Below, piece by piece: positions 23,194-56,510 of a stretch of DNA of 59,077 bases. The stretch is taken from contig JAPOOG010000009.1 in the NCBI GenBank assembly GCA_026713545.1, forward strand, positions 1-59,077. Direction: 5' to 3'. The notes under the pieces were generated by a model. That model did not search any database. It saw nothing but the letters and a program-made list of their open reading frames with translations, and was not told the origin of the DNA. The DNA comes from Bryobacterales bacterium (GTDB lineage: Bacteria > Acidobacteriota > Terriglobia > Bryobacterales > UBA6623). Position 1 is the stretch's first letter. Each line of letters opens with the position of its first letter. Made by a program: the position numbers and the translations under genes.

Positions 23194-23392
23194 GCCTGCA
23201 TGTCTCACCACGCAGCGAGGCGAAGTGCGTGAGAGGGCCGTCAGGACGAGGCGCGAGCCGGGCGGAGGAAAAAGGCGCGCGCAGGCGTACTTGACGGTAC
23301 GTCGAGCACGGCAAGCAAGCGTTGCGAAGGAAAAGCGAAGTCATGGCGGTTGTATCGCGTGCTTCGGCCGTCGGGTGGTGAGAAATGCAGGT
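23194..23392. mobile_element. MITE-like inverted-repeat element, family 1, copy 1
   Basis: 199 bp with 18-bp terminal inverted repeats, GCCTGCATGTCTCACCAC and its complement-related ACCTGCATTTCTCACCAC (two mismatches), each flanked by TA. The interior is a degenerate full-length palindrome centred near CGTACTTGACGGTACG. It encodes nothing. TA flanks suggest insertion by an IS630/Tc1-type transposase supplied in trans; none is in the window. Confidence 0.75.
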
Positions 23393-23432
23393 TAGCCTTG
23401 GGTTTCCGTCTTGCTACTATCCGATGCAAGCA

Positions 23433-24401
23433 ATGCACTCCTTGTTTTCCGCGGGACGATACGGGCTGATGTTGGGACTGTTGCTGGCCTTGGCCGGCTG
23501 TGGCACTCCTCGAAGCCGGCATGTTCGGAGCGTTCCTCCCCCTCCGCCGGAACCGGTCATGCCGTTGCCCGAGCCGGTGCATCCGGGGAATGACGCTCCG
23601 GAAATTTCCGCCGTGTCGGTGCTACTGTCGTTATCGGTTCCGATTCTTCCTCAGGATGTTCCCCTAGTCCTGCCGCCGCGCGAGATCCCCCCGGCGCCCG
23701 ACGATCCGTTGAAGTTGTTCGGGAGACATGTTTTTCACAGCGCCGGCGGACAGAAGCTGCCCTATCGGCTCCTCAAACCCTGGAACTTCGAACCGGATAA
23801 GGATTATCCGCTAGTGGTTTTCTTGCACGGGTCCCGGGCGCGTGGAAGCGACAACCATCGTCACTTGAACGGCAGCAGTGAGCTTGGGATCTCGTTGTGG
23901 ACGTCCAACGAGGTGCAAAGAGACTATCCCAGTTTTGTGCTCGCCCCACAGGCAAAGACGACTTGGGTGCGCAGTTGGGCGCTCGTCGAACGCTCTGCCA
24001 ACCGCCGGGAACCACTGGAACTGGTCGTCGAGCTTATCGAAAGTCTGAAGGGGCGGCACAACATCGATCCGCGGCGGGTCTACATCAGCGGCGTATCGAT
24101 GGGAGGGTTCGGTGTTTGGGGCGCGATCACGCGGCACCCAACGTTATTCGCCGGTGCCGTAGCCGTTTGCGGGGGCGGCAACCCTCGCATGGTGAAGCCA
24201 AACTCCACGCCGGTGTGGGTCTTTCACGGTTCGAGGGATACCGTTGTCTCGCCGCGCCGCTCTCGGGAGATGGTGGCGGCGCTGCGGCGAGTTGGCGGAA
24301 GCGTCAGGTACACCGAATACAAAGGCGTTCGTCACGACAGTTGGAAACTAGCCTTCAAAGAAGCTGAGCTTGTGCCTTGGTTGTTCTCTCAAAAGCTCTG
24401 A
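23433..24401 (+). CDS. Lipoprotein alpha/beta-hydrolase (esterase/PHB-depolymerase-like)
   Basis: 322 residues from MHSLFSAGRYG, with lipobox LALAGC (C23) and a proline-rich linker after it. The hydrolase domain starts near residue 90: PLVVFLHGSRARGSDN (oxyanion loop of the GERG type), nucleophile in SGVSMGGFG, acid in HGSRDTVVS, histidine in GVRHDSW. This set is complete for a serine esterase. Related proteins are predicted peptidases or feruloyl and acetyl esterases. It begins 40 nt after the MITE, so transcription may start from the element. Confidence 0.8.
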   Translation: MHSLFSAGRYGLMLGLLLALAGCGTPRSRHVRSVPPPPPEPVMPLPEPVHPGNDAPEISAVSVLLSLSVPILPQDVPLVLPPREIPPAPDDPLKLFGRHVFHSAGGQKLPYRLLKPWNFEPDKDYPLVVFLHGSRARGSDNHRHLNGSSELGISLWTSNEVQRDYPSFVLAPQAKTTWVRSWALVERSANRREPLELVVELIESLKGRHNIDPRRVYISGVSMGGFGVWGAITRHPTLFAGAVAVCGGGNPRMVKPNSTPVWVFHGSRDTVVSPRRSREMVAALRRVGGSVRYTEYKGVRHDSWKLAFKEAELVPWLFSQKL

Positions 24402-24486
24402 CGAGAAGAGCCGACCGCTGGACTTCTCGAACCCGCTACGCTTCTGGGGTAGTGCCCGAGAAAAAGCCGAGCATGACAGCCCCGGC

Positions 24487-25191
24487 ATGAAATGGCTCTG
24501 GAAGCGGAAACGGCGCAACAGGAAGCGCCGGCGGCTGCCGCCGCTCGTGCGCTGGCTGTTGCTGCTGGGGCTTGGTTTCTACGCCTACTGTGCGATTGTA
24601 CTGGTGGGACTGAGATGGTTCATCCCAATCTCCACCGGTGTTCAGATTCAAAGGCGCGTTGAATCGTTTTTCCAACAAGGTGAGTACAGCCCCGTACAGA
24701 TATTCGTACCGCTGGAGAACATCCCGATCCATGTACAACGGGCCGTCATCGCGGCGGAGGACGGGCGGTTTTACGAACACCGTGGTATCGATTGGCTCGA
24801 GTTGGCAAAGGTTTTCGAGGAAGTCGAGACACGGGGCCGGTTGCGAGGAGGCTCGACTATCTCCCAGCAACTTGTCAAGAACCTGTTCCTGACCACGCAT
24901 CGTTCGCCCATCAGAAAGGGACTCGAGTTGACGTTGGTGCCGATCGCGGAACTCTTTCTTTCTAAGGATCGGATCCTGGAGCTGTATTTGAACCTTATCG
25001 AATGGGGCCCGGGCATCTGGGGTGTGGAGGCGGCGTCACGTTACCACTACGGAACTTCGGTCAATCGACTTGACCGGGAGCAGAGCGCTCGCTTGGCGGC
25101 CTGCATCCCCGATCCGCTCCGGCGGCGTCCTTCGCAAATGGACGCCTACAGCGGGATCATCCTGGAACGGATGAGAAGCCGAGGGTGGTAG
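24487..25191 (+). CDS. mtgA: Monofunctional peptidoglycan glycosyltransferase
   Basis: 234 residues from MKWLWKRKRRN, one transmembrane anchor (about 22-43), then a GT51 domain: AEDGRFYEHRGIDW (catalytic Glu), GGSTISQQLVKNLFL, and EWGPGIWGVEAASRYHYG. No transpeptidase domain. Polymerises lipid II in the periplasm. Confidence 0.9.
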   Translation: MKWLWKRKRRNRKRRRLPPLVRWLLLLGLGFYAYCAIVLVGLRWFIPISTGVQIQRRVESFFQQGEYSPVQIFVPLENIPIHVQRAVIAAEDGRFYEHRGIDWLELAKVFEEVETRGRLRGGSTISQQLVKNLFLTTHRSPIRKGLELTLVPIAELFLSKDRILELYLNLIEWGPGIWGVEAASRYHYGTSVNRLDREQSARLAACIPDPLRRRPSQMDAYSGIILERMRSRGW

Positions 25192-25406
25192 CCGGCAGCG
25201 AAAGGGCTCTAGCGAAAAGAGGTCCGTCCTCTTCGCACCATCAGAGAAAGCCTGTCATACGGCGGCGGGATGCAGGAAAAGGCTCCTGTCCCGATTCCGG
25301 GAATCCTCCTCTTTCGGAATTGCGTACGAACAAACGGCTCGGCCGTTCAATGGTTCCTTCTCATCATTCGGCCTCCGCTTCTTCGATATAATTCCTCGCA
25401 TCGACA

Positions 25407-26672
25407 ATGGCTTCCCCTCGGTACACCGCAAGATGTTTTCCGGGCCGCGCTATCCGTCTGATCGCGGCGGCGTTGCTGCTCAGCACCGTCTCCTGGAGTC
25501 AAAACATGCTGCGGCCCTCCCTGCAGGACGGCTCGATTCGTATCATCAACTCCGATCGGGCCGTTCTTTCGTCGCCGGAAAGACGAAAAGATGTTCCTTG
25601 CTCGGTATTCCCGTCCAAGCCGAAGTTGGGATTTGATCTGCAGTTCACCGCGGGATACATGGCGACCGTTCCGCTGCGTGCGCTCGCCGGCTCGGGAAAC
25701 AGCCTGCGTATCTTGTTCCGCGTCGAGCCGCTCGACGGCAAGGGCAAGCGGCATTACTTCTGGGACCGCTATTCCGTGCCGGCGCTCACACCCGATGCCG
25801 TGGGTGAAGCCGCCATTCCCGGGCGCTTCAAGTTGGGGGCCGGCCGCTACCGTGTGGCCTGGCTCTTGCGCGACCAGTCCGAGAGAGTCTGTTCCGAGCA
25901 ATGGGAAATCGAGTGCTCGGTGCCCGGACTCATAGAGGACCGTGGCGGAACGCGTCAGCCCTTTACGGTCGGTCCGAACGAGGTCGAGTTGTTCCTGGAA
26001 GAGCCGCCTGTCCAGCGCGTGAAGGCCGACAGGCTGTTGCATGTCAAACTGCTTGTCAACTTCACTCCCACCGACGCAAGCAAGGTCAAACTGCATCCTT
26101 ACGACCTGCAGAACATTGTGTCGATCGTCCGCGCCATCTCGCGGGAACCCCGCATCGGTTCATTCAGCTTTGTCGGCTTCAACATGCAGGAAGAGCGCGT
26201 GATCCTGGAGCAGCAGGACGTGCGCCGCATCGACTTCCCGGCCCTCGGTGAAGCGGTGGCCTCGATTGAAGGCGGCATCATCGATTTCGCTCAGCTTCAG
26301 GATGAGGAAAGCGACTATCGTTTTCTCACCGAGCTGTTCACCAGGCATCTCGGCCCGCAAGAGCCCGATCCTGACGCGGTGGTGATCATCGGCCCGAAGC
26401 TGATGCTCGAAAAGAAAGTGTCGCACAAGGTCCTGGCCGAGAATCCCCAGGTGCGCGCGCCTGTCTTCTATCTGATCTACAACACCGACCCCTACGTTTA
26501 CCCCTGGCGGGATGCGATCAGCAGCGCGCTGAAGTTCTACCGCGGGTTGGAGTACACCATCTCGCTGCCGAAGGACTTCGGCAGAGCGATGAAAGACATG
26601 ATGGCCCGCATCGTCGGCAAGACCGAGCCCTCGGTGAACACGTTCCTCGAAACGGGAGTCTCCACCCAATAG
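25407..26672 (+). CDS. Exported protein of unknown function
   Basis: 421 residues, signal peptide in the first 32 (RLIAAALLLSTVSWSQ). The mature protein has a beta-rich first half and a helical second half with VVIIGPKLMLEKKVSHK and PVFYLIYNTDP. Proteins with this arrangement occur in acidobacterial genomes as hypothetical exported proteins; I recognise no domain. Preceded by a 215-base gap without obvious features, followed closely by the NucS-like gene. Confidence 0.7.
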   Translation: MASPRYTARCFPGRAIRLIAAALLLSTVSWSQNMLRPSLQDGSIRIINSDRAVLSSPERRKDVPCSVFPSKPKLGFDLQFTAGYMATVPLRALAGSGNSLRILFRVEPLDGKGKRHYFWDRYSVPALTPDAVGEAAIPGRFKLGAGRYRVAWLLRDQSERVCSEQWEIECSVPGLIEDRGGTRQPFTVGPNEVELFLEEPPVQRVKADRLLHVKLLVNFTPTDASKVKLHPYDLQNIVSIVRAISREPRIGSFSFVGFNMQEERVILEQQDVRRIDFPALGEAVASIEGGIIDFAQLQDEESDYRFLTELFTRHLGPQEPDPDAVVIIGPKLMLEKKVSHKVLAENPQVRAPVFYLIYNTDPYVYPWRDAISSALKFYRGLEYTISLPKDFGRAMKDMMARIVGKTEPSVNTFLETGVSTQ

Positions 26673-26718
26673 ACACTTCCGTTCTCGAAGACCCGATGAG
26701 ACCCTGAAGGAGGAGCCG

Positions 26719-27775
26719 GTGCTGTTTCGACTCATTCGCGAGGCTGAAAAGACCGACTTTCAGCAATTCATGAAACGACCGGCTTCAGAGTTGTGCCTCC
26801 TAGAGAAGGATGTGGAGAACCGGATTGCCAGGCACCCGGAACTGCTGTTTGGAAGCGGCGAGAAGGTATTGGTGGTCGCTCAATCCGTCAGCGGTCACAG
26901 CATGGCCGACGCATTGGCTCTGGACGCCGAAGGAAAGCTGGTCATTGTCGAGATAAAACGGGACTGGTCCGATAGAGCGACAGTTGGCCAACTGCTCGAA
27001 TATGCAGCTGCAATGACTGGGAAGAATTATGAAGATCTGGAAGAACTGTACCGGAACTACTGGACTCGACTCAATGGCGAAAGTCCGTGTGTTTCCTTGC
27101 TCGAAGAGTTTCAAAAGCTAACCGAAGACCCTACGATTGAAGAAAAGGACATTCCGAAACGTCCGCGAGGTCATCGGATTTGTATCGTGGCTCCGGACTC
27201 CGACCAAGGTCTGCGGCGGATCATAAAATGGTTGCAGGAGTATGATGTGCCGATTAGCTTCGTGCCCTTCGCTCTCTATGCTGATAACGATACTTCGAAC
27301 ATTCTGCTAGAGATAGAGCCTCTGCCGAAGGTTCAAGCGGCAGGCGAAAGTGTCGGTGGCAAGTGGGACGGAGATTGGTTTTTCAATACGAACGAAACCT
27401 ACAAGCCGGACGCATATTTGAATATGTTTGAACAGGATGTAATCGCTATTTTCGGCTACGATGACGGTCCGGCGCGCCTGGAGGGAAGCTCCGCAGGAGA
27501 GAGTCTTCGCCTACGTCAACGGAAAAGGAGTTCTGGCAGTTGTGCATATCGTTAACGGCCAAGTCGTCCCTGGAGACAAAGTTTTCAATGAGGTTCGCGA
27601 GTTCCATGTGAAAGTCAAATGGGAAACAGTTGTGGACGATGACAAGGGTGTAAAGAATTGGGAGGTCCGACAGAAATATGACTACGGTCTCCCTGTTCGC
27701 AATGTCTTTTGTGGCATGTATCGTCATGACATCGCGAACTGGATTGCTGATGAGCTTCAACGCAGGAAGCAGTGA
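26719..27775 (+). pseudogene. NucS-like endonuclease-fold gene with a frameshift
   Basis: GTG start after an excellent AAGGAGGAG. Frame 1 runs to 27555 and holds a PD-(D/E)XK-type core (ALALDAEGKLVIVEIKRD) in the N-terminal half. The 3' part reads properly only in another frame (from about 27461 to 27775): RVFAYVNGKGVLAVVHIV and DYGLPVRNVFCGMYRHDIANW. A single base gain or loss at about 27465-27500 would join the frames. The region is lower in GC than its neighbours, so it was probably acquired. It may be inactive or a sequencing error; neither can be ruled out here. Confidence 0.65.
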
Positions 27776-27789
27776 ACTCCACTACCTCA

Positions 27790-28132
27790 AGGAACCGCGC
27801 GATATGGTTCCTGCGGTCACCCCGTGTAGAGTGAGGAAGACGGCGACCCGGGGCAATCTCCTCCGACGAATGACAAACCCGACGTCTTGGGCGGTCGCCT
27901 CTTCGGTCACAGTGAGCAGCGAGATCAGCACCCTGGGAGCGCGGGCATCCTGCCCGCATCATCGCCGCCGGAGAGAATCGGAATAAAAAAAGTCCGTCTC
28001 CCAAAGGATTACCCGCCGATTCCGGCTGACGGCGCGGAATGCGTGGCGCCTGAGTTTCTCAAGCGACCAAGCGTTTACTCAATCGGCCCCATGACGCGTA
28101 ACGCCGCCTGCGTGACTTTCATCACGGGCTGC
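27790..28132. mobile_element. Intergenic element, family 2, copy 1
   Basis: About 340 bp, sharing blocks with the element at 43601: TCCTGCGGTC, GAGTGAGGAAGACGGCGACCCGGG, ATCTCCTCCGACGAATGAC, and a 3' end GACGCGTAACGCCGCCTGCG, TGACTTTCATCACGGGCTGCC. It also carries a stem (GCGGGCATCCTGCCCGC) typical of REP-like repeats. No ORF of interest inside. Confidence 0.6.
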
Positions 28133-28150
28133 CAACACCGGATGACCGTT

Positions 28151-28453
28151 CTACGACCCGGCTCGCGTGCTCGCCCGTTGTAGATCCCAGTCTGCCTGGA
28201 GCCTCATCCAGAACTGAGGCGAGGTCTTCAACAATCGTGACAATCGCAGGGCGGTATCCGTCGTGATGCGGCGCTTGCCGAGTACGGCTTTATTGAGACG
28301 ATTCGCTGAAATCCCCAGTTGTTTCGCGACTTGCGTTTGCCGGAGTCCCAAAGGTTTGAGGAACTCTTGGAGCAATATCTCCCCGGGCGGGATGGCTGGT
28401 CCCGGCCAACTCGGGTTCCTGATGATCGTCTTCGATTCCAACTTCGCGGGCAT
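28151..28453 (-). CDS. higA: HigA-type antitoxin, no partner toxin visible
   Basis: 100 residues with GGGAG 7 nt before the ATG. Opens with NPSWPGPAIPPGEILLQEFLKPLGL (HigA addiction-module antidote signature) and a helix-turn-helix around QTQVAKQLGISANRLNKAVLGKRRI. It lies 21 nt after the Xaa-Pro aminopeptidase stop, so may share its transcript. HigB is normally just upstream; here that place is the peptidase, and no RelE-like ORF lies downstream either. Confidence 0.85.
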   Translation of the reverse strand: MPAKLESKTIIRNPSWPGPAIPPGEILLQEFLKPLGLRQTQVAKQLGISANRLNKAVLGKRRITTDTALRLSRLLKTSPQFWMRLQADWDLQRASTRAGS

Positions 28454-28474
28454 GGCCGTTCTCCCAGTGGGCCG

Positions 28475-29773
28475 TCAATGCCCTCGCATCAGCTTTTCGA
28501 TCTCGTCCGCCTCTTTCGGCAGCGCCTTGCTGAGCAACAGCGCCCCATTCTCGGTGACGAGGACCATGTCTTCGATGCGCACGCCGAGCTCTGCCTCCGG
28601 CAGGTAGAGGCCGGGTTCGATGGTGATGACCATGCCGGCCTTCAGAGGCTGGGAAGGGTCGATCGGGTCGTGCACGCCGAGCCCCACGCTGTGACCGACA
28701 CCGTGGAGAAAGCGGGCTCCCATAGCTTCGCCGACCGCCTCCCGCCCCGCTTCATCGAAATACCGCTTCGCTTTGTGCGTGAGGCCGCGGAGCGTCTCGC
28801 CGGTCTTGACGGCGGCGATGACCTTCCGCTGAACGTGGAGCACCAAGTCGTAGATCTCGCGTTGCCGCTCGTTGAACACGCCGTCGACGGGAACCGTTCG
28901 CGTCAGGTCGGCAGCGTAGTGGGCGTATTCACCCCCTACGTCCATCACGACGACCTCGCCCGGTTCCAGCCGCCGCCTGCCGGCAGTGTAGTGCAGTGCG
29001 GTCGAGTTCGGTCCGCTGCCGATGATCGGGGCATACGCGGGCCGCAGGCAGCCGCGATCGATCATCGCGGCCAGCATCGGGCCCAGGATCTGGTATTCGT
29101 ACAGGCCGGCTTCAATTTTTCGCCACGCTTCTATATGAGCCGCAATGGAGGCGTCAACCGCCTTCCGGATCAAGCGGATTTCGCCCTCGGATTTGACCGC
29201 CCGCATCGCCTCCAACTGGGCGCGAATATCGGCGATCGGCAACTCGCCGGCATAGGTTTGCAGCTTTTCCCGTCGGTCCGGTTCGGGTTGCTGTCCCTCG
29301 CCGGCTCGATGAGGGAATAGCGTGTAGACGTGCGAACGTTTCTTCGCGGCTCGGCTCAGCCGGGTTGCCAGCTTCGAAATGGGAAGGACCCTTTCAAACC
29401 CGGTCTGCGAGCGGATATCCGCGTCATCCGGCGCTGCTCGTGGCCCGTGCCACTTTTCGTGCGAAGGGTCATCAGGCGGCAGGAAGAGCAACTCTCGGTA
29501 CACGCTTCCGTCGCCTTGGGCCGGGATCAGCAGCAGCGCCGCGCCGGGCTCGTTCCAGCCGGTCAGGTAATAGAAGTTGTTTTCCTGGCGGAACGGCGAT
29601 CGGACCGCCTGCGCCTCCTGCCGCTCGTAGCCGAGGAGCAGGATGAGGCCGTCGGGATGAACCTCCGACACGGCCCGCCGGCGCTGATGGTAGACCTCGA
29701 AGGCCTCTCGCTCCAGGCCCCGCGATGCGCCGTGCGGAAGGACGAGGAGTAGCAGAACAGCGAGGCGGCGCAT
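28475..29773 (-). CDS. pepP: Exported Xaa-Pro aminopeptidase, M24B family
   Basis: 432 residues from MRRLAVLLLLVLPHGASRG, with a signal peptide and GAGG close upstream. The N-terminal creatinase-like domain (RQENNFYYLTGWNEPGA) is followed by the metal-binding pita-bread domain: MDVGGEYAHYAADLTRT (Asp ligands), HGVGHSVGLGVHD (His ligand), ITIEPGLYLPEAELGVRIEDM (Glu ligands). It removes an N-terminal residue before proline; export would place it in the periplasm. HigA follows on the same strand. Confidence 0.9.
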   Translation of the reverse strand: MRRLAVLLLLVLPHGASRGLEREAFEVYHQRRRAVSEVHPDGLILLLGYERQEAQAVRSPFRQENNFYYLTGWNEPGAALLLIPAQGDGSVYRELLFLPPDDPSHEKWHGPRAAPDDADIRSQTGFERVLPISKLATRLSRAAKKRSHVYTLFPHRAGEGQQPEPDRREKLQTYAGELPIADIRAQLEAMRAVKSEGEIRLIRKAVDASIAAHIEAWRKIEAGLYEYQILGPMLAAMIDRGCLRPAYAPIIGSGPNSTALHYTAGRRRLEPGEVVVMDVGGEYAHYAADLTRTVPVDGVFNERQREIYDLVLHVQRKVIAAVKTGETLRGLTHKAKRYFDEAGREAVGEAMGARFLHGVGHSVGLGVHDPIDPSQPLKAGMVITIEPGLYLPEAELGVRIEDMVLVTENGALLLSKALPKEADEIEKLMRGH

Positions 29774-29892
29774 CCGCCTCAGTATAGGTAGGACTTTTTC
29801 GATGCATGACGAGCAAGCCATTCCGGCCCCGCGCTGCAGAATGTGTTTCGGTTACAATTCAGACTCCTCGGCTTGATTGCCCCTGTCGTCCT

Positions 29893-30324
29893 ATGTATCT
29901 TGTTCGTGGCTTCTTTCGTCTGCTGGCCGTGGCGTTCACGCTCGTTGTGTCTCTGTTCCTGTTGGGAGTAGGCCTGCTCGCCATGGGGAACGCTGACACC
30001 CTTCGCTTCGACGTCGTGCCGCTGCTGACCGGGGAAGCATTGGCTCGCTTTCTGACGGGCATGGGCATTCTGGGGCTTGGCGCGCTCATCTTGCTGTTTC
30101 GCCTCAAATCGCTTGCGTCCTGGCTGTTGCTTCTCTGGAACCTGGTGGTCGTCAGCATCCTGCTGTGCGCCGTCACACGACCTTCCTATCAGTTCGATGG
30201 CATGGACCATTTCGAGAACGGGGTGTATTTGTTTCTGCTCGCTCTCGCGGCGCTTTGGGGAAGCTGGTTCCAGCTACGAGCGGCGCGAAGTCGAAGTCAC
30301 CGTTATAGAACACGTACAGGATGA
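29893..30324 (+). CDS. Small four-helix membrane protein
   Basis: 143 residues from ATG at MYLVRGFFRLL. Four hydrophobic segments (about 8-28, 51-72, 75-96, 110-130), an arginine-rich C-terminus. TTACAATTC at 29853 upstream may be part of a -10. Family not identified; membrane location is clear. Confidence 0.55.
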   Translation: MYLVRGFFRLLAVAFTLVVSLFLLGVGLLAMGNADTLRFDVVPLLTGEALARFLTGMGILGLGALILLFRLKSLASWLLLLWNLVVVSILLCAVTRPSYQFDGMDHFENGVYLFLLALAALWGSWFQLRAARSRSHRYRTRTG

Positions 30325-30351
30325 TTCTCGAGCCGGCTCGCCGGCCGCATC

Positions 30352-30759
30352 ATGGAAGACCTGATCCTCCACCTCGTAGGCCCCCTTGCTGCACTGCTCT
30401 TCCTGCTATTGGGGCTCGCTTTCACCGTCTTTTCGATCATGGGGATATGGAAGATGTTCGAAAAGGCGGATCAGCCGGGTTGGGGCATCCTGGTCCCGAT
30501 TTATAACCTGATCCTCATTGTTCGGGTGGCGGGTCTGCCGGGATGGATGTTCCTGCTGCTTCTGATTCCCGTCCTCAACTTCGTGGCGAATATCATCGTG
30601 TCTCTGGAACTCCGCAAAAGGTTTTCAAAAGGGGTTGGATTCACGATCGGCCTCATTTTCCTGCCGGCGCTGTTCTACTCCTTGCTCGGATTCGGCTCCG
30701 ATGTGTACATGCCGCGGCCTGCAGCTACGGAACATGCCCCGCCGCGCCCTGAACAATAG
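30352..30759 (+). CDS. DUF5684 membrane protein
   Basis: 135 residues, three to four membrane segments. The signature WKMFEKADQPGWGILVPIYN, then GLPGWMFLLLLIPVLN and ELRKRFSKGVGFTIGLIFLPALFYSLLGFG, matches DUF5684. No function is known. It lies 27 nt after the preceding membrane gene. Confidence 0.8.
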   Translation: MEDLILHLVGPLAALLFLLLGLAFTVFSIMGIWKMFEKADQPGWGILVPIYNLILIVRVAGLPGWMFLLLLIPVLNFVANIIVSLELRKRFSKGVGFTIGLIFLPALFYSLLGFGSDVYMPRPAATEHAPPRPEQ

Positions 30760-30765
30760 CCTGCA

Positions 30766-31059
30766 ATGCGACTGCGCGCCACGCGTGACCGGCTGAAAGT
30801 CGAGCACTCGATCATCGAAGGCTTGCGTCGTGTGCTGGAAGACCTCCTCGAACAGAACCCGGAGATACGATCGATCATCCCCGGCGCGATCAAACCGGTT
30901 CGCAAGGCGCGCGGCAAGATCAGGATCCGAGTCACAATCCCGACGCTGACGGGGTGGAAGGGCATTGCTCTTGCCGCGGGCGCTCGGCAAGAACTGTTCA
31001 TTACGACGACGCTCTCGCAAGAAGAACTCGCATCGCGAATTGCGGCCGTCCTGGAGTAA
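30766..31059 (+). CDS. DUF2103-like small protein
   Basis: 97 residues, only 6 nt after the preceding gene. SIIPGAIKPVRKARGKIRIRVTIP and a C-terminal QELFITTTLSQEELASRIA recall the DUF2103 family (predicted metal-binding). The assignment is from general pattern resemblance. Confidence 0.5.
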   Translation: MRLRATRDRLKVEHSIIEGLRRVLEDLLEQNPEIRSIIPGAIKPVRKARGKIRIRVTIPTLTGWKGIALAAGARQELFITTTLSQEELASRIAAVLE

Positions 31060-31062
31060 CTC

Positions 31063-31890
31063 CTATAGCCCGTATGCTTCAACGGCCGTCCCGTCCCAGA
31101 AACGCTCCTGTTCGGTATCGCTGAGGCGGGCAACGTATTTCTCGACGAGCCGGAACCAGCGTCCATATGGAGTCGCCAGCAGGCACATGGGCCAGTCTGA
31201 GCCGAACATCAGGCGTTTCGGACCGAACGCTGAAAATATGATGTCGAAGTATGGCATGAGCTGCTCTTCGCTCCACGTACCCCAGTCCGCCTCGTTCACC
31301 ATGCCTGAGACTTTGCAGTAGACGTTGGGCCGTTGCGCGAGTTGTGTAAGGTTCGACTGCCACGGCGCAAGCAAACCCTCCTTGATGCGCGGTTTGGCGG
31401 CGTGATCAAGAACAAAAACCTGATCCGGGTGCCGGTCGACGAACTGCAGGGTCTGCGGCAGATGCCGCTCGAAGATCAGGATGTCATAGACCAGACCGAA
31501 GTCCTTGAGCAGCGCAACGCCCCGATTGAAGTCGTCGCGCAGCATGTAGTGGTTGTCCGGTTCGCTTTGCAGGACATGTCGCACCCCCTTCAACTCGTCT
31601 CGATCGGCGAACCTTTCGATCTCTTCTCGTACGGAACCGCTCACGAGCGGGACCCAGCCCACCACTCCGCGGATGAAGTCGTGCTCCTGCGCCCAGGCAA
31701 GCAGGTCTTCGGTCTCCGACAGGGTCTGCCTTGCCTGTACCGATACGACGCCGTCAATGCCGACTTCGGCGATCTCCCGCTCGAGATCGAGCGGGAGGAA
31801 ACTGCGGCGGATCGTCCGCATGCCGTCGTGGATCCAACCGTATTCCGATTGGGAATAGCGCCAAAAGTGGTGATGAGAGTCGCTCTTCAT
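31063..31890 (-). CDS. Amidohydrolase-fold lactonase (L-fuconolactonase-like)
   Basis: 275 residues. Opens with SDSHHHFWRY (metal-binding His), then VLDHAAKP, NVYCKVSGM and the C-terminal RLMFGSDWPMCL, which are the L-fucono-1,5-lactonase and 2-pyrone-4,6-dicarboxylate-lactonase signatures. It opens the lactone to the sugar acid. It follows the aldo-keto reductase gene by 58 nt on the same strand, consistent with a two-step oxidation of a deoxy-sugar. Confidence 0.82.
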   Translation of the reverse strand: MKSDSHHHFWRYSQSEYGWIHDGMRTIRRSFLPLDLEREIAEVGIDGVVSVQARQTLSETEDLLAWAQEHDFIRGVVGWVPLVSGSVREEIERFADRDELKGVRHVLQSEPDNHYMLRDDFNRGVALLKDFGLVYDILIFERHLPQTLQFVDRHPDQVFVLDHAAKPRIKEGLLAPWQSNLTQLAQRPNVYCKVSGMVNEADWGTWSEEQLMPYFDIIFSAFGPKRLMFGSDWPMCLLATPYGRWFRLVEKYVARLSDTEQERFWDGTAVEAYGL

Positions 31891-39537: not shown

Positions 39538-39645
39538 GATGGCATTCCGTCGAAGCCTGTCGCCCCGAGAACGATCGGGCAAGCCCACCCCCCAAGCAGG
39601 CTCCGGCCTGCATTTCTCGTCACTCCGCGGCTGAAGGAAGTACGC

Positions 39646-45268: not shown

Positions 45269-47224
<1,956 letters not shown>

Positions 47225-47231
47225 GAAGATT

Positions 47232-48812: not shown

Positions 48813-49688
48813 ATGCCAGCACGCGAAAGCGAATCCCTGATTCTGAGAACGTACCCCTACCGTGAGGCTGATCTTGTGGTCAGCTTTGTCAGCCGCGAGC
48901 AGGGCAAGCTGCGCGGCATTGCCCGCGCGGCCCGGCGTCCCAAGAGCCGCTGGGGATCGGGCCTCGAGAGTCTCGCGCACGTTCGGCTGTTTTACTTTCT
49001 GCGGGAAAACCAGGAACTCGCGCGGCTCGATCGCTGCGAGTTGCAAAGCCCTCCCTTGTTTCTGAAAGCGGACTATTCCGTGAGCGTGGCGCAAGCTTTC
49101 GTTGCGGAGGTCAGCGAGAAACTTCTGCCGGAACACGAGCCGAACGACGCCTACTTCCGCCTGTTGCTGCTGGTGCTCGATGAGATGAAAGAGGGGGTAA
49201 ACGGCAAGCTGACGACGGTGGGCACGACCTCGCCTGGTAACGCCGAAGGACCTGTGGTTGCAAGCAACGGACCGGCGGACGCAACCTCGAAACCGCGTGC
49301 AGCCGCGCCGCCTTCATCGGATGTGCCCGTCTGGCTCTGGCGGACACTGGTCTACTTCGCGCTTTGGTCGCTTCGGCTGGGCGGCTGGTTGGCTCCTCTG
49401 AACGTGTGCGTTCAAAGCGGCGTGGAGTTGGGTCCCGAGGAGACGGCCTATTTCGACCGCGGGCAGGATGGCCTCTACTCGGCCGATTTCCGGAACGCGG
49501 ATTCGTGGCCTCTCAGCGCCTTGTCGCGTCAACTTTCCAACAGGATGCTGCGCCATTCGCTTCCGGAACTTCGCGAGAGTCTCAGCCCGAACAGTAATCA
49601 AGCCGACTTGTTCCGGTTCTTGACGCAGCGGCTGGAATTCCATTTCGAGCAGCGGCTCAAATCCGCCGCGTTGCTCAGTCAGCTTTAA
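48813..49688 (+). CDS. recO: DNA repair protein RecO
   Basis: 291 residues. OB-fold N-terminus (SLILRTYPYREADLVVSFVSREQGKLRGIARAARRPKSR) and a helical C-terminus. A 50-residue S/T/P/A-rich insert (about 130-170) lengthens it. The usual four-cysteine zinc site is reduced to one Cys (LNVCVQSG), so it probably does not bind zinc. The last 45 residues recur downstream in 50277-50423. Confidence 0.88.
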   Translation: MPARESESLILRTYPYREADLVVSFVSREQGKLRGIARAARRPKSRWGSGLESLAHVRLFYFLRENQELARLDRCELQSPPLFLKADYSVSVAQAFVAEVSEKLLPEHEPNDAYFRLLLLVLDEMKEGVNGKLTTVGTTSPGNAEGPVVASNGPADATSKPRAAAPPSSDVPVWLWRTLVYFALWSLRLGGWLAPLNVCVQSGVELGPEETAYFDRGQDGLYSADFRNADSWPLSALSRQLSNRMLRHSLPELRESLSPNSNQADLFRFLTQRLEFHFEQRLKSAALLSQL

Positions 49689-49719
49689 TACAAAGAATAG
49701 TCAGAGGTATCGTTCTTCA

Positions 49720-50280
49720 ATGGAATTGATCAGCACGGAGGCACCGGACCTCCGTTACCCCATTGAGCAGTTCTCACCTCCGGACACAACAGTCACGCGG
49801 GACCAGCTCGATCGTTGGATTGACGACATCGCGGCGTTGCCCTCCGATCTCCGGGGCACCGTTTCTACTTTGACCGACGAGCAACTCGATACCCCGTATC
49901 GTCCGGACGGCTGGACTGTCCGGCAAGTCGTCCATCACCTGCCCGACAGCCACATGAACAGTCTCATCCGCTTCAAGTGGGCGCTGACCGAAGACCGGCC
50001 GCTGATCAAGGCCTACGATGAAAAGGGCTGGGCCGTGCTTCCCGACTGCTGCAAGCCGATCGGGCATTCGCTGGACCTCCTCGATGCCCTGCACCGCCGC
50101 TGGGCGGACTTGCTGCGCGGCTTGAGCTGGCCGCAACTGCAGCGCGAGTTCGTGCACCCCGAGTCCGGCCCGGTGGAACTGGCCGTCACGGTCGGCGCCT
50201 ACGCCTGGCACGGGCGGCATCATCTGGCTCACATCGAGCGGCTGATCGAACGCGAGGGATGGAACGAACGAGCCCGCTGA
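49720..50280 (+). CDS. YfiT/DinB-type putative bacillithiol S-transferase
   Basis: 186 residues. LRYPIEQFSPPDTTVTRDQLDRWIDDIAALP, VRQVVHHLPDSHMNSLIRFKWALTEDRPLIKAYDE and a C-terminal HGRHHLAHI. The histidines form a metal site. This is the YfiT/BstA signature, in which thiol transfer uses bacillithiol. It stands between recO and a recO remnant. The link to bshC is metabolic. Confidence 0.85.
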   Translation: MELISTEAPDLRYPIEQFSPPDTTVTRDQLDRWIDDIAALPSDLRGTVSTLTDEQLDTPYRPDGWTVRQVVHHLPDSHMNSLIRFKWALTEDRPLIKAYDEKGWAVLPDCCKPIGHSLDLLDALHRRWADLLRGLSWPQLQREFVHPESGPVELAVTVGAYAWHGRHHLAHIERLIEREGWNERAR

Positions 50281-50423
50281 GCAGGTTGTTTTCGCTTCCG
50301 GATCTTCGCGGCCGCCATGACCCGAGCAGCCATCGCGACGACTTGTTCCGGTTCCTGACTCGGCGGCTGCAATTCCACTTCGAGCATCTGCTCAAAAACG
50401 CCGCGCGGCTCGGTCAGCTATAA
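50277..50423 (+). pseudogene. Remnant of a second recO 3' end
   Basis: Frame opening near CTGAGCAGGTTG reads SRLFSLPDLRGRHDPSSHRD, DLFRFLTRRLQFHFEHLLKN, AARLGQL and TAA (50421-50423). It aligns with the RecO C-terminus DLFRFLTQRLEFHFEQRLKS and AALLSQL. After the stop, both copies continue with A-rich sequence (TAATACAAAGAATAG, TAAAGAAAGATACG), so the duplicated stretch reaches past the coding end. Confidence 0.75.
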
Positions 50424-50492
50424 AGAAAGATACGTCCTCACGGCGCCGGGACCCCGGCCGCTGTTTCTTGTAGTAGCTGTCCCCGCTCACAC

Positions 50493-51383
50493 ATGCAGAC
50501 GTATCAGGACATCATCCTCAAGCTGAAGTCTTTCTGGGCGGCGCAAGACGCGGTCATCCAGGAGCCTTTCGACATGGAAGTCGGGGCCGGCACGATGTGT
50601 CCGGAGACCTTTCTGCGAGTGCTCGGTCCGAAACCCTACCGAACGGTCTACGTGCAGCCGAGCCGGCGCCCGGCGGACGGCCGCTACGGCGAGAACCCCA
50701 ACCGGCTCTACAAGCACATGCAGCTTCAGGTGATTCTCAAGCCGTCCCCGGACGACATCGTCGAGCTGTACATGCGCAGTCTGGAGGCCATCGGCATCGA
50801 TCTGCGGCGGCATGACTTCAAGCTCGAAGAGGACAACTGGGAAGCGCCTACGCTGGGCGCCTGGGGCATCGGCTGGCAAGTGATGCTCGATGGCCTGGAA
50901 ATCACCCAGTTCACCTACTTCCAGCAATGCGGCGGTATCGACCTCGACCTGGTGCCCGTGGAGTTGACCTATGGGCTCGAACGCCTCACGGCTTTTCTGC
51001 AGAACGTCGACAGCATGTACGACATCCAGTGGAACGATACCTGGACGTACCGCGACGTGCGCTTGCTCGACGAGCAGCAGTACTCGGTCTACAACTTCGA
51101 GAAGGCCGACGTCTCGGCCATACGTAAGGCCTTCGAGATCCACGAAGCGGAGAGCCGGCGCTTGGTCGGCGAGTACCAGACCGTCGAGGATACAGCCGAG
51201 AGCGCGCGCTTCCCCCTGCTTCCTGCTTACGATCAGGTGCTCAAGTGCTCCCACCTGTTCAACACGCTCGATGCGCGAGGGGCGATCAGCGTGGCCGAGC
51301 GGGCTGCGATGATCCAACGGGTTCGCAAGCTCGCTGTTAGTTTGGCGGCGGCCTGGATGGACCAGCAGGAGGCGATCGGCTGA
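50493..51383 (+). CDS. glyQ: Glycyl-tRNA synthetase alpha subunit
   Basis: 296 residues, usual for the alpha chain. [66 protein letters not shown] covers class II motifs 1-2 regions; its stop overlaps the glyS start (TGATG). With the beta subunit it charges tRNA-Gly. Confidence 0.97.
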
Positions 51384-53440
51384 TGGCTGAATTCCTGCTG
51401 GAGATCGGCGTCGAGGAGATTCCGGATTGGATGATCGAGCCCGCCTGCGAGCATCTGAAGCGCAATTTCCTGGGCGTGCTGACGGAGACAGGCTTGGCGG
51501 AAGGAGTGGCCTGCGTCACACACGCGACACCTCGCCGTCTGGTGCTGGCTGCTCAGCAAGTCCCCGAGCGGCAAGCCGACAAGGAAGAGGTGCTGAAGGG
51601 TCCGCCCAGAAAGATCGCTTTTGACGCGGGCGGCAAGCCCACGAAAGCCGGTGAGGGCTTCGCCAGGCGGGCGGGCGTTGCGATGACCGACATTCAGGTC
51701 GGTATCGACGACCGGCTTTTTGTGAAGCGAATCATGAAAGGCCGGGGGACGCTCGAGATTCTGGGCGAAGCGCTCCCGGCCGTCATCCTCAAGATTCACT
51801 TTCCGAAGACGATGTATTGGACCGGGAAGTCCGGGCCGCGTTTTATCCGCCCGATTCGTTGGCTTGTGGCGCTGCTCGACGGGCGGGTCGTGCCGTTCGA
51901 GATCGCCGGCGTCGCATCCGGTGGAAGCACGCAAGGTCATCGGCGTCTGGGCTCCGTCGGCATCGACGTCACAAGCTTCGCTGATTACCAGGATCAACTC
52001 TACGAAAACTACGTGCTGCTTTCGGCGCCAACGCGGCGGGAGCGAATCGAAAAGCTCGCGGAAGAACTTGTGCACGACGGCCTGCGGGTCCGTAAGAACG
52101 ACAAACTACTCAAGACGCTGTGCTACTTGACGGAATACCCGACGCCGATTCTCGGCAAGTTCGAAGAGGAATTCCTCGACCTGCCGGAAGAGGTGCTCGA
52201 GACCGTGATGCAGCACCACCAGCGGTACTTTGCCGTCGAGAACGCCAACGGCAAGCTGCAGCCGCACTTCATTGCTGTGGCCAACCTGGACGGCGACCCG
52301 GCTGGGGAGATTCAGCGCGGCCACGAGCGGGTCCTTCGGGCGCGGTTCAACGACGGACGTTTCTTCTGGGAAGTCGATCAGAAACAGAAGCTCTCCGAAC
52401 GTGTGGAGGATCTGGAAGGTGTCGTCTTTCACGCCAAGCTGGGCACGTACCTGGCCAAGAGCAGGAGGATGATAAGAATCGTCGGCGAAATTGCCTCGGA
52501 ACTCGGCGTCAACGATGAGACATCGCGGCATGCGCGCCGTGCAGCCGAGCTGGCGAAGTGCGATCTGACGACCGCGATGGTCGGCGAGTTCCCGGAGTTG
52601 CAAGGGGTGATCGGGGGCTTGTACGCGACCCACCAGGGAGAGCCGCGAGAAGTGGCCGATGCGATCTACGATCACTATCTGCCGGCCGGAGCGGAAGAAG
52701 AGATCCCGAGGGGCCTCGCTGGCAGGATGGTGGCGATTACCGACAAGCTCGATACGCTGGGAGGCTTCTTTGCGGCCGGCATGATGCCGAGCGGTTCGCG
52801 GGACCCCTTCGCGCTGCGTCGCGCGGCCTACGGCATCATCCGCATCCTGATTGAGGGCGAACTGCCGCTGTCGGTCGACCGGCTTTGCGAGCTGGCCGGC
52901 GCGGGCGGTCACGCCGGCGATTTGCGCACATTCTTCGTCGACCGCCTGCGCTATTACCTTCGCGAAGTACGGGGCTACCGCTACGACGAGGTGAACGCCG
53001 TGATCGGTGCCTCTTCGGAGGTTCCGCTGGACGTGAGGCTTCGTACGGAAGCCATTTCACGAGTGCGTCCGACCCCCGATTTCGAACCTCTGGCGGTCAG
53101 CTTCAAACGCATCGAAAACATCCTGAGGAAGGCTGGCGGTGTCGAGAAGTACGCTGTGCAGACGGTCGCCATGGACCTGCTCGAAGAGGGCTCGGAGGCC
53201 GACTTGTACCGCGCCGTGACTGCTCTCAGCGCCCAGGTCAGCCGCAGGAAGAGAATGGGTGAGTACGCCGCGGCGTTGATCGCCATCGCCTCGTTGCGGC
53301 CCGCCGTCGATCGATTCTTTGACGACGTGCTCGTTATGGCCGAAGACGAAGCCGTGCGCAATAACCGCCTCGTCTTCCTGGCTCACGTGCTGACCGAGTT
53401 CTCTACCATCGCAGACTTCGGGGAGATCGTTTCCGGCTGA
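51383..53440 (+). CDS. glyS: Glycyl-tRNA synthetase beta subunit
   Basis: 685 residues; ATG overlaps the glyQ stop (TGATG). [22 protein letters not shown] at the start, [31 protein letters not shown] HD-like region in the middle, and the anticodon-binding C-terminal domain. Complete. Confidence 0.97.
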   Translation: [685 protein letters not shown]

Positions 53441-53506
53441 ATTCGGAAGCGTCGTATGGCAGAACCAGAACAACGAGCACAAATAAAAAACGGAGCAAAA
53501 AAGAAG

Positions 53507-56182
53507 ATGGACAAGTACATCTATGCATTCGGATCAGGGACGGCCGAAGGCGACGGGACGATGAAAGACACTCTCGGGGGCAAGGGCGCGGGCTTGGCAG
53601 AAATGAGCCGGGCCGGAGTGCCGGTTCCCCCAGGCTTCACCATCGCAACCCAGGTCTGCAACCTGTACTTCGAGAACGGCAATACGACCCCGCCCGCGAT
53701 CCAGGAAGAGATGGAGCGGCAGCTCACGAAGCTCGAAGAAACGATGGGCCAGAAGCTGGGTGATACGGACAACCCGCTTCTGGTGAGCGTCCGCTCGGGC
53801 GCCAAGTTCTCGATGCCGGGCATGATGGACACCATCCTCAACCTCGGGCTCAATGACGAGACCACGAAGGTGCTCGCAAACAAATCGGGCAATCCCCGCT
53901 TCGCCTACGATTGCTATCGGCGCTTCATTCAGATGTTCGGCAATGTCGTGTTGGCTATCGACAAGGATGATTTCGAGCATCTGCTCGAAGACCTCAAGAA
54001 GCAGCGGAAAGCCAAGCTCGACACCGACCTCACGGTGGAAGACCTCAAGCTCTTGACGCAGCAGTTCAAAGGGGTTGTCCAGCAGAAAACCGGGAAGGAT
54101 TTCCCCCAGAACGCTCGGCAGCAGCTCGACATGGCGCGGGACGCCGTCTTCCGGTCGTGGCACAACCCGCGAGCCAGGCATTACCGCCGTATGAACGAGA
54201 TCGCCGATGACCTCGGTACGGGCGTGAATGTGCAAACGATGGTGTTTGGCAACCTCGGCGATACGTCGGCGACCGGTGTGGGTTTCACGCGCAATCCCGC
54301 GACGGGAGAGAAGGTGTTCTACGGTGAATTCCTGATCAACGCGCAAGGGGAAGACGTCGTCGCCGGCATTCGCACGCCGCGGCCGATTTCAGAGCTCCAG
54401 GAGTTGATGCCCGAGGCTTTTGATGAGTTGCGGAAGATCACGACCAATCTGGAAAACCACTACCGCGATGTGCAGGATTTCGAGTTCACGATCCAGGACC
54501 GCAAGCTCTACATGCTGCAGACGCGCAACGGCAAGCGCACCGGCCCGGCCGCCGTTCGCATCGCGGTCGAGATGGTCGAAGAGGGCCTGATCTCTAAGCA
54601 GGAAGCCGTGCTGCGAGTCGACCCCGCGCAGCTCGACCAATTGCTTCACCCCGTTCTTGAAGCGAAATCGAAAGCCTCTCTCAACCGTTTGACAGTTGGC
54701 TTGCCGGCTTCGCCCGGGGCGTCGGTGGGGCGGATTGTCTTCACTGCCGACGAGGCTGTCAAACAGGCGGCTAGGGCCCCGGTCGTACTGGTTCGCGCCG
54801 AGACGACACCGGACGACATCCACGGCATGGAGGTCGCGAGGGGCATCCTTACCTCGCGCGGCGGAATGACGAGCCACGCGGCGGTTGTCGCGCGCGGTAT
54901 GGGAACGCCTTGCGTGGCCGGCGCGGGCGAGATCAACGTCGATACCAGAGCCAAGCGCTTGCAGTGCCGCACGACGACGTTGAAAGACGGTGACTGGATA
55001 TCGCTCGACGGCTCGACCGGTGACGTTTTTGAGGGTCAGGCGGCCACGATTGATCCCGACCCATCGGGCAGCCACCTCGCAAGCTTCATGTCGTGGGTGG
55101 ACGAGTTTCGGACGGTCGGCGTCCGCACCAACGCCGAGGTGCCGCGCGACGCGAAGACCGCTCGCAAGTTCGGCGCGGAGGGCATCGGCCTTTGCCGCAC
55201 CGAGCATATGTTCTTCGCGGGTGAGCGCATCGAACACATGCGTGCGATGATCCTTGCGGATAACGAGACGGATCGGCGCAAAGCCCTCGAGAAGCTTCTG
55301 CCGATGCAACGCAAGGATTTTCGCGACCTGTTCGAGGTCATGGACGGCTATCCGGTCATTATCCGTACGCTGGACCCGCCGCTGCATGAGTTCTTGCCGA
55401 AGCGTGAAGACTTGATGGTCGAGATCGCCGCCATGAAGGCCTCCAACGAGAGCCGCGGCATCAAGGCCAGGGAAGAGTTGCTCGTCCGCGTCGAAGAACT
55501 CCACGAGTTCAACCCCATGCTGGGCCACCGCGGCTGCCGCCTGGGCATTACTTTCCCGGAAATCACCGAGATGCAGGCGCAGGCCATTTTCGAAGCTGCG
55601 GTCCAGTGCGCCAGAGAAGGCATCAGGGTCATTCCGGAAATCATGATTCCGCTGGTGGGAAATGTCCGGGAATTGGAAAACCAGAAACGCATCGTTGTGG
55701 AAACGGCCGACAAGGTGTTCACTCAAGCAGGAATGAAGGTGGATTACATGGTCGGCACGATGATCGAAGTGCCCCGCAGCGCGCTGACGGCCGATCAGAT
55801 CGCTCGGGAAGCCGAGTTCTTCAGCATCGGCACGAACGACCTCACGCAAACGACCTTCGGTTTTTCACGGGATGACTCGGGCGGATTCATCCAGGAGTAT
55901 CAGAAGCGGAACATCATCGATCAGGATCCGTTCGCTGTCATCGATCGCGATGGCGTTGGCTCGCTGATCAAGACCGCTCTCCGGAAGGGCCGCGAGACCC
56001 GCCCGGATCTCGAAATCGGCATCTGTGGCGAGCACGGCGGCGACCCGAAATCCGTCGAGTTCTGCGTCCATGCCGGACTGGACTATGTGAGCGCTTCCCC
56101 GTATCGCGTGCCGATCGCTAAACTGGCGGCGGCGCAGGCAGCGATCTCCAGAGGCAAGGAAGAGTTGATGCGGACGGCTTGA
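53507..56182 (+). CDS. ppdK: Pyruvate, phosphate dikinase
   Basis: 891 residues from MDKYIYAFGSGTAEG; an ATG at 53456 would add 17. Interconverts pyruvate and PEP. N-terminal ATP-grasp domain, phosphohistidine in GGMTSHAAVVARG (H457), and the C-terminal PEP-binding barrel with GICGEHGGDP (C840 general acid). Follows glyS by 66 nt; T-rich tract GACTTTTTCG after the stop. Confidence 0.96.
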   Translation: MDKYIYAFGSGTAEGDGTMKDTLGGKGAGLAEMSRAGVPVPPGFTIATQVCNLYFENGNTTPPAIQEEMERQLTKLEETMGQKLGDTDNPLLVSVRSGAKFSMPGMMDTILNLGLNDETTKVLANKSGNPRFAYDCYRRFIQMFGNVVLAIDKDDFEHLLEDLKKQRKAKLDTDLTVEDLKLLTQQFKGVVQQKTGKDFPQNARQQLDMARDAVFRSWHNPRARHYRRMNEIADDLGTGVNVQTMVFGNLGDTSATGVGFTRNPATGEKVFYGEFLINAQGEDVVAGIRTPRPISELQELMPEAFDELRKITTNLENHYRDVQDFEFTIQDRKLYMLQTRNGKRTGPAAVRIAVEMVEEGLISKQEAVLRVDPAQLDQLLHPVLEAKSKASLNRLTVGLPASPGASVGRIVFTADEAVKQAARAPVVLVRAETTPDDIHGMEVARGILTSRGGMTSHAAVVARGMGTPCVAGAGEINVDTRAKRLQCRTTTLKDGDWISLDGSTGDVFEGQAATIDPDPSGSHLASFMSWVDEFRTVGVRTNAEVPRDAKTARKFGAEGIGLCRTEHMFFAGERIEHMRAMILADNETDRRKALEKLLPMQRKDFRDLFEVMDGYPVIIRTLDPPLHEFLPKREDLMVEIAAMKASNESRGIKAREELLVRVEELHEFNPMLGHRGCRLGITFPEITEMQAQAIFEAAVQCAREGIRVIPEIMIPLVGNVRELENQKRIVVETADKVFTQAGMKVDYMVGTMIEVPRSALTADQIAREAEFFSIGTNDLTQTTFGFSRDDSGGFIQEYQKRNIIDQDPFAVIDRDGVGSLIKTALRKGRETRPDLEIGICGEHGGDPKSVEFCVHAGLDYVSASPYRVPIAKLAAAQAAISRGKEELMRTA

Positions 56183-56289
56183 CTTTTTCGCTCAACAGCA
56201 TCCGGGGATCGCGAAAGAAGGAAAAATCCTGTCCGCATCACTGCGTCACTGCGTTCCTCGATCGTCCACGAGTTGCTCCATCGTCCCCG

Positions 56290-56332
56290 GTGGGCGTAAT
56301 GCCGCCCGCGTGACTGTTGCTACGGGCAGCTA
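56290..56332. mobile_element. Right-end fragment of element family 2
   Basis: GGGCGTAATGCCGCCCGCGTGACTGTTGCTACGGGCAGC aligns with the right ends of the elements at 27790 and 43601. It is followed by TA and then directly by the left end of the family-1 element at 56333. Confidence 0.55.
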
Positions 56333-56510
56333 CCCTGTCTTTCTCACCACGCGGCGAGGTGAAGTGCGTGAGAGGGCCGTCAGGACGAGGCGCGAGCCGC
56401 TTGGCGCGAGCAGGCGTACTTGACAGTACATCGAGCACGGCAAGCAAGCGCAACGAAGTCATGGCGGTCTTACTGCGTGCTTCGGCCGTCGGGTGGTGAG
56501 AAATGCAGGC
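56333..56510. mobile_element. MITE-like inverted-repeat element, family 1, copy 2
   Basis: 178 bp. Left end CCCTGTCTTTCTCACCAC (preceded by TA), right end GTGGTGAGAAATGCAGGC. Interior aligns with the copy at 23194 throughout, with GTACTTGACAGTAC at the centre. The right end is 2 nt from the stop codon of the enolase-family gene (minus strand). Confidence 0.78.

What the first reader, a model, noticed from the sequence alone, without database searches (positions are those of the whole stretch)
23194..56510. TA-flanked, fully palindromic non-coding element (MITE family 1) whose ends sit on gene stop codons
Two complete copies (23194-23392, 56333-56510) have near-perfect TCTCACCAC/GTGGTGAGA ends extending to about 18 bp. 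Each is an imperfect palindrome over its full length with a CGTACTTGAC-type centre. A half copy is at 16094-16172, and its right end alone occurs at 4887-4900. The elements look TA-flanked. On the minus strand the end reads TA followed by A or G, then CCTGCAT. If such an element inserts into the TA of a stop codon TAA/TAG it would restore a stop. The MFS gene stop (4897) lies exactly at such an end and the enolase gene stop (56512) lies 2 nt from one. The conserved folded core suggests selection on structure.
Basis: partly seen in the sequence, partly recalled or inferred. Interest (0 to 1): 0.7.

Follow-up and report, generated by a model that had tools for sequence, protein, structure and literature searches.

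The report
Hairpin mobile elements with IS1380 ends
This is a short, non-coding jumping DNA that a known type of bacterial transposase (IS1380) probably moves; it folds into one long hairpin that has been kept in very different bacteria, and it often sits exactly on gene stop codons without harming the gene.

Summary
The window copies belong to a family with 17-bp inverted tips (CCTGCATTTCTCACCAC) flanked by 4 bp, YTAR, not plain TA. The Bryobacterales genome holds at least 131 matches to a model of the whole element and 256 exact 12-bp tips, against 0 in the reversed control. Intact IS1380-family insertion sequences elsewhere, two in a sister species, have similar ends and flanks: best read as an IS1380-mobilised MITE.

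The body looks like more than a relic. Copies from Acidobacteriota and Gammaproteobacteria keep one 176-nt hairpin in register while sequence diverges (23 of 57 pairs with change on both sides). One strand folds better (100 of 100 copies of this genus), suggesting RNA or single-stranded DNA.

Ends on stop codons are real: 46 of 146 non-genic elements against 33.7 expected (P about 0.011). YTAR contains TAA/TAG and insertion keeps the stop, so this is mostly passive.

Unexplained: in 15 of 21 insertions absent from the sister species the two flanking tetranucleotides differ, unlike IS1380A on an Acetobacter plasmid (14 of 16 identical).

The parts
23195..23391 (+). complete 197-bp element (copy 1); inverted ends CCTGCATGTCTCACCAC / GTGGTGAGAAATGCAGG
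23191..23194 (.). left 4-bp flank TTAG
23392..23395 (.). right 4-bp flank TTAG (identical to left)
56334..56509 (+). complete 176-bp element (copy 2), full-length hairpin
   Evidence: fold, z -7.2; model match; this copy was one of the seven the model was built from
56330..56333 (.). left flank CTAC
56510..56513 (.). right flank CTCT; the stop codon (TAG, minus strand) of the enolase-superfamily gene is at 56512-56514
16014..16169 (+). complete 156-bp element whose middle holds a heptamer stretch; flanks CTAT / CTGG
4884..4896 (+). lone right end beside a heptamer array
4897..4900 (.). TTAG flank; 4897-4899 is the TAA stop of the minus-strand MFS gene 4897-6279
39607..39623 (+). lone left end, flank CCGG, no right partner found

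Best explanation
A high-copy, non-coding element with 17-bp inverted ends, moved in trans by IS1380-family transposases that recognise similar ends and insert into a YTAR-like tetranucleotide (ends, flanks and transposases shown; mobilisation inferred). The body is one imperfect hairpin of about 176 nt, kept between Acidobacteriota and Gammaproteobacteria with compensatory changes, and better on one strand in this genus (shown), so a single-stranded form, RNA or single-stranded DNA, is probably needed for its spread or persistence (inferred; which one is open). Ends lie on stop codons because YTAR contains TAA/TAG, in-frame TAR cannot occur inside genes, and the flank keeps the stop intact (location shown, passive cause inferred).
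For: Ends and partner: four intact IS1380-family ISs match the element's tips at 13-16 of 17 positions per end, with YTAR flanks (CTAG or CTAA) on both sides in three and on one side in the fourth: two in the sister Bryobacterales MAG, one Gammaproteobacterial, one Planctomycetota (CTAG/CTGA); NF033539 E 3e-115 to 2e-121 for the 3 of 3 proteins scanned; two plasmid copies of one IS1380 element in Pseudomonas and Stutzerimonas have CTAG on both sides. Flank: positions 1 and 4 of left and right tetramer agree in 104 and 109 of 146 copies against 72.7 and 85.4 for shuffled pairing. Mobility: 21 accepted filled/empty pairs between the sister species. Non-coding: no frame without stops in more than 52 of 100 copies. 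Structure: z -6.4 to -10.7 for 5 of 5 copies folded; seven aligned copies, 23 of 57 pairs with change on both sides, 0 of 500 shuffles as high, 6-9 when slid; the model matches in 9 of 13 tip-bearing genomes, six of which gave it no sequence. Strand: forward fold better in 100 of 100 copies; single changes at inner pairs G-U 204, A-C 88, other mismatch 221; C>T 244/4088 against G>A 120/4088 at paired sites, reversed at unpaired sites, 17/596 against 82/1692. Stops: frames open for 150 codons or more ending in the flank codon at 97 of 487 sides, 34 and 27 in the other frames.
Against: No intact IS1380 gene among the 8 and 9 matches in the window's own genome; one element-rich Gammaproteobacterial MAG (98 model matches) shows none at all, so a live partner is not seen everywhere. 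Unequal flanks in most young copies do not fit plain IS1380 transposition. L187 shows no strand difference (-90.5 against -91.0). The element is not oriented with the gene whose stop it touches (35 sense, 39 antisense; in tandem gene pairs 56 and 39), so read-through mRNA is not clearly the selected RNA. No expression data. All genomes but the plasmids are MAGs.
Confidence: 0.72

Rival explanations
1. The element is a REP/BIME-type palindrome moved by a Y1 (RAYT, IS200/IS605-like) single-strand transposase.
For: Palindromic, mostly intergenic, high copy; a strand-specific hairpin fits a single-stranded substrate.
Against: Y1_Tnp (PF01797): 0 matches in own genome and in G015, the two element-rich genomes searched; 9 in G016, which has only 17 model matches. 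Ends and flanks match IS1380. The other tip-bearing genomes were not searched for Y1.
Confidence: 0.06
2. A plain deletion derivative of IS1380 whose palindrome arose by chance or is selected as double-stranded DNA (cruciform).
For: Ends match IS1380; minimal tip-to-tip forms of 34 and 39 bp exist; L187 shows no strand difference.
Against: The same 176-nt register and compensatory changes between phyla; strand asymmetry is not expected of a cruciform, which exposes both strands.
Confidence: 0.15
3. Unequal flanks arise because the excised element carries its donor 4-nt flank into the new site (as known for piggyBac overhangs; recalled), so one flank is target and one is donor.
For: Mismatch with the empty site is confined to the 4 bp: 48/168 against 102/1008 in the adjacent 24+24 nt, Fisher P 2e-9 (both flanks are held against one empty site, so counts are not independent); exactly one flank equals the empty site in 8 of 21; unequal flanks in 15 of 21, binomial P 7e-4 at the neighbouring divergence. 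Copies at least 97% identical to another still differ in 18 of 30.
Against: IS1380A: 14 of 16 copies have identical flanks, five of them at unusual targets. Neither flank equals the empty site in 12 of 21.
Confidence: 0.35
4. Unequal flanks arise after insertion by exchange (gene conversion) between copies, helped by ordinary mutation.
For: At 8 of 10 sites filled in both species the two copies differ in length by 10 nt or more and are less alike than the best copy elsewhere; at four of the ten both flanks have changed as well.
Against: At the other six shared sites the unequal flank pair differs by at most one base between species, and the mismatch with empty sites stops sharply at 4 bp without a gradient. 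Internal deletions could explain some of the length differences.
Confidence: 0.4

Closest known systems
IS1380 family (NF033539; IS1380A, and the CTAG-flanked group on Pseudomonas/Stutzerimonas plasmids)
   Same: similar inverted ends and YTAR-like 4-bp flank in this group
   Different: the element has no gene and its flanks are often unequal; its body was not compared systematically with IS interiors; IS1380A itself has other ends and a TCGA-like target
Bacterial MITEs with stem-loop transcripts: ERIC, Correia/NEMIS, RUP, YAPL (passages of PMC2229807)
   Same: 100-200 bp, long stem-loops, inverted ends, non-autonomous
   Different: most of those reviewed have TA ends; here YTAR and IS1380-like ends, and one hairpin in register between phyla
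piggyBac superfamily (passages of PMC10813416 and PMC10140906)
   Same: 4-bp TTAA target; IS1380 transposases used there as distant prokaryotic relatives/outgroup
   Different: no fold or sequence comparison with piggyBac made here; target YTAR, unequal flanks
REP/RAYT palindromes
   Same: high-copy palindromes
   Different: no Y1 transposase in the two element-rich genomes searched; correlated 4-bp flanks

Membership tests
MITE | short, non-coding, inverted ends, many copies | tested here: met
MITE | target-site duplication | tested here: inconclusive
   left and right correlate but are unequal in 15 of 21 young insertions
IS1380-mobilised element | ends shared with an IS1380-family IS | tested here: met
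   four intact ISs match at 13-16 of 17 positions per end, one further is broken; for family
IS1380-mobilised element | moved in trans by that transposase | not testable with these tools
   needs a transposition assay
IS1380-mobilised element | intact transposase in the same genome | tested here: inconclusive
   intact in G015 (2 copies), no intact one in the own genome, none found in G009
REP/RAYT | Y1 transposase in the genome | tested here: not met
   0 in own genome and G015
MITE of another DDE family (IS5-like, YTAR) | partner of that family with these ends | tested here: inconclusive
   PF01609 gives 2 places in the own genome: the IS1380 relic and one 125-aa open frame at C1 whose ends were not examined; other transposase families were not searched
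Described structured RNA family | Rfam match | tested here: not met
   no match over the window; over 8 other loci one match, not on an element
piggyBac-like mechanism | donor flank carried to the new site | tested here: inconclusive

The most novel reading that the evidence does not exclude
The element encodes a conserved single-stranded hairpin, most likely an RNA, that takes part in its own mobilisation by a cut-and-paste IS1380 transposase, and it carries its own flanking tetranucleotide from site to site: a structured-RNA-dependent DDE transposon that spread across phyla.
Probability: 0.15. Interest if true: 0.88.

Novelty: new variant of a known kind. Interest (0 to 1): 0.6.

Why it matters
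Many bacterial MITEs are taken as decayed insertion sequences (general view, recalled). Here a family with IS1380-like ends keeps one hairpin, in register, between phyla and better on one strand, which a mere relic would not be expected to do. It gives a testable case for a role of a single-stranded hairpin in the life of a DDE element, shows how a YTAR target makes stop codons a safe landing place in a dense genome, and raises an open question on how IS1380 elements process their flanks.

Tried and rejected
Plain TA duplication: rejected, the correlated unit is 4 bp. Duplications of 2, 3 or 5-9 bp: not in excess. Inverted rather than direct relation of the flanks: weak (positions 3 and 4 only, shuffle P 0.007 and 0.02). 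IS5-type partner, first guessed from the YTAR flank: not supported. RAYT partner: no gene. Orientation with the neighbouring gene: no bias at stops, 35/39; tandem pairs 56/39. Built-in start codon (tip reads GGTGGTGAGAAATG outward): coding-like frames from the tip ATG 25, other frames 13 and 9 of 487 sides, but merely open frames of 100 codons or more are 75, 94 and 41, which does not favour the ATG frame; one clear case, a phosphofructokinase gene; kept as a side observation. RNAalifold on 100 similar copies gave no useful consensus fold, so the fold of the consensus and the cross-phylum alignment were used. Gene calls come from my own codon-score caller, not a standard tool. Stop-codon count: of 195 elements collected, 8 of mixed origin and 11 from far genomes were left out, as were 20 with under 600 bases of flank and 10 called genic. 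Filled/empty pairs: 7 of 28 dropped (listed there); one pair used (L061) fell out when the loci were merged; two of the 21 kept (own_C88:96324, L083:7580) have poor identity further out.

Paper searches: (listings only), passages of five papers. In the listings and passages seen none describes an IS1380 MITE of this kind; the papers listed were not read whole. That piggyBac carries TTAA overhangs without DNA synthesis is recalled; one search shows only that papers hold such a phrase.

Full report
What is there. The window is contig C144 of a 5.6-Mb genome in 170 contigs. A sister species in the same genus (G015) is taken to be the public MAG Bryobacterales bacterium RHO3_bin_12: the genome holding locus L061 of that MAG has its two intact IS1380 genes on the same contig numbers and nearly the same coordinates as G015. 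The two complete copies, the copy at 16014-16169 (complete, 156 bp, not half) and two lone ends are placed in the parts list. The end motif GAGAAATGCAGG occurs 256 times in the genome and 0 times reversed. A DNA search gave 40 near full-length matches among the 40 candidates scored of 576. A model of the whole element gave 131 matches from 131 scored candidates; only part of them is listed, and those listed from the own genome span the model 1-176. Both counts are lower bounds.

Flanks. In 146 copies (54 own, 92 from other records) the bases beside the ends read mostly Y-T-A-R on both sides. Positions 1 and 4 agree between left and right in 104 and 109 copies, against 72.7 and 85.4 for shuffled pairs; positions 2 and 3 do not exceed shuffling. 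The correlated unit is therefore 4 bp, not TA.

Partner. No intact IS1380 gene shows among the 8 PF13701 and 9 NF033539 matches in the own genome. Of 14 tip-bearing genomes, 9 have a PF13701 match. Four intact ISs have the same kind of ends and flanks: L162 and L169 in the sister species (CTAA/CTAA and CTAG/CTAG), L161 in a Gammaproteobacterium (CTAG/CTAG) and L160 in a Planctomycetote (CTAG/CTGA); they match the element's tips at 13-16 of 17 positions per end. L163 in a Terriglobium (TTAA/TTAG) is broken by two stops. The three proteins scanned are all IS1380 family. IS1380 relatives on Pseudomonas and Stutzerimonas plasmids have CTAG-flanked CCCGCATTTCTCACA ends. No Y1 transposase is found in the two element-rich genomes searched. 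One element-rich MAG, G009, has no IS1380 gene found.

Distribution. It is rare at large: 2 of 396 genomes drawn from the phylum, own genome included, and 3 of 61 relatives, own genome included, with the 17-bp tip. Misbinned contigs cannot be excluded for single hits; three Gammaproteobacterial MAGs with 52, 74 and 98 model matches are not of that kind.

Structure. Copies of 175-176 nt from this window, from another genus of the same order and from three Gammaproteobacterial MAGs each fold into one full-length hairpin, z -6.4 to -10.7, with 0 of 200 shuffles as good. Among the four copies of exactly 176 nt, compared without any gap, inner pairs of one copy are canonical in another at 56-92%, against 16-58% when slid; the unslid value is the highest in 12 of 12 ordered comparisons, and interior identity is 36-65%. 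In the alignment of seven copies, 90.5% of pair cells are standard, 23 of 57 pairs have a change on both sides, none of 500 shuffles reaches these values, and slid structures give 6-9 such pairs. The structure was derived from the same alignment, which favours it over the slid versions. The model then matched in 9 of 13 tip-bearing genomes. Three of the nine (G008, G009, G010) had given sequences to the model, so hits there are partly by construction; six had not, among them the Deltaproteobacterial (85 matches), Thermoanaerobaculales (60) and a further Gammaproteobacterial (74) genome. In 16 of 21 relatives, own genome included in the 21, there was no match; same-genus G016, without any exact 17-bp tip, has 17.

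Strand. The 100 copies of 174-179 nt from the two sister species were oriented by shared 8-mers with the window copy, the Gammaproteobacterial copies by eye on the centre motif, neither by energy. The forward strand folds better in 100 of 100 (mean -100.3 against -76.6 kcal/mol) and in the three Gammaproteobacterial copies, but not in L187. At inner Watson-Crick pairs, single changes give G-U 204 times, A-C 88 times and other mismatches 221 times. Double Watson-Crick changes number 56 against a shuffled mean of 19.5, maximum 31. C>T exceeds G>A at paired sites (5.97% against 2.94%), and the reverse holds at unpaired sites (2.85% against 4.85%), so strand-biased mutation alone does not explain it. 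Copies are related and cells are not independent events. The inference is that a single-stranded hairpin was selected while copies spread; RNA and single-stranded DNA are not told apart. The copies are not protein-coding: the most open frame lacks a stop in 52 of 100 copies.

Stop codons. With a home-made gene caller, the emptied contigs hold 128 YTAR sites at stop codons, 510 between genes and 453 inside genes. Of 156 elements in the two sister species with at least 600 bases of flank, 10 were called genic and left out. Of the other 146, 46 have a gene's stop exactly in the gene-side flank; the availability of sites predicts 33.7 (P about 0.011). A stop under selection also keeps its flank readable, which biases towards an excess. 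The frame test without gene calls agrees that stops are there: 97 of 487 sides have a frame open for 150 codons or more ending in the flank codon, against 34 and 27 in the other frames.

Flank puzzle. Comparing the two sister species gave 28 candidate filled/empty pairs, 21 kept. The two flanks differ in 15 of 21. The flanks differ from the empty site at 48 of 168 bases, against 102 of 1008 in the adjacent 24+24 nt, with a sharp edge at 4 bp. Exactly one flank equals the empty site in 8, both in 1, neither in 12. Copies at least 97% identical to another copy still differ in 18 of 30; the share of unequal pairs rises to 56 of 65 among copies with no close relative. By contrast IS1380A on an Acetobacter plasmid has equal flanks in 14 of 16 copies, including five unusual targets (read by eye from 17 printed junction pairs; one with a replaced right end was left out, as were two partial copies of the 19 matches). 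At 10 sites filled in both species, 8 hold copies that differ in length by 10 nt or more and are less alike than the best copy elsewhere (copies elsewhere were compared only when of similar length), so exchange between copies may be common. Carry-over of the donor flank and exchange after insertion both remain open.

Verdict. An IS1380-mobilised MITE family is the best reading, with a hairpin conserved between phyla and better on one strand as the new part. Stop-codon placement is real but ordinary. The flank inequality is unexplained.

Noticed in passing
window 818-938, 4670-4887, 6484-6650, 16063-16092: Degenerate heptamer arrays (CACGARW)n; 154 doublets in 1.54 Mb of own contigs, 0 reversed; doublets sit inside 28 of 120 own and 41 of 133 sister-species elements, in some replacing the centre.
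   Followed up: partly
L359:5497-6672 (G015), empty site in L150: A phosphofructokinase gene whose start is replaced by the element tip: GGTGGTGAGAA-ATG-CAG-GCT reads into the gene in frame; the own genome has ATG-GCT-AGG there.
   Followed up: yes
own_C48 31242-31275; G15_C19 148886-148919: 34-bp elements made of two tips only.
   Followed up: no
G003 (Deltaproteobacteria MAG, record of L070): 85 model matches, many of those listed with the same score of 124.4 bits, suggesting a recent burst of nearly identical 178-nt copies.
   Followed up: no
window 208-373 with 4162-4327, and 687-801 with 4554-4668: Longer direct repeats at 72% and 89% identity near the heptamer arrays.
   Followed up: no
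L097:179-251: Rfam group II intron match just over threshold.
   Followed up: no
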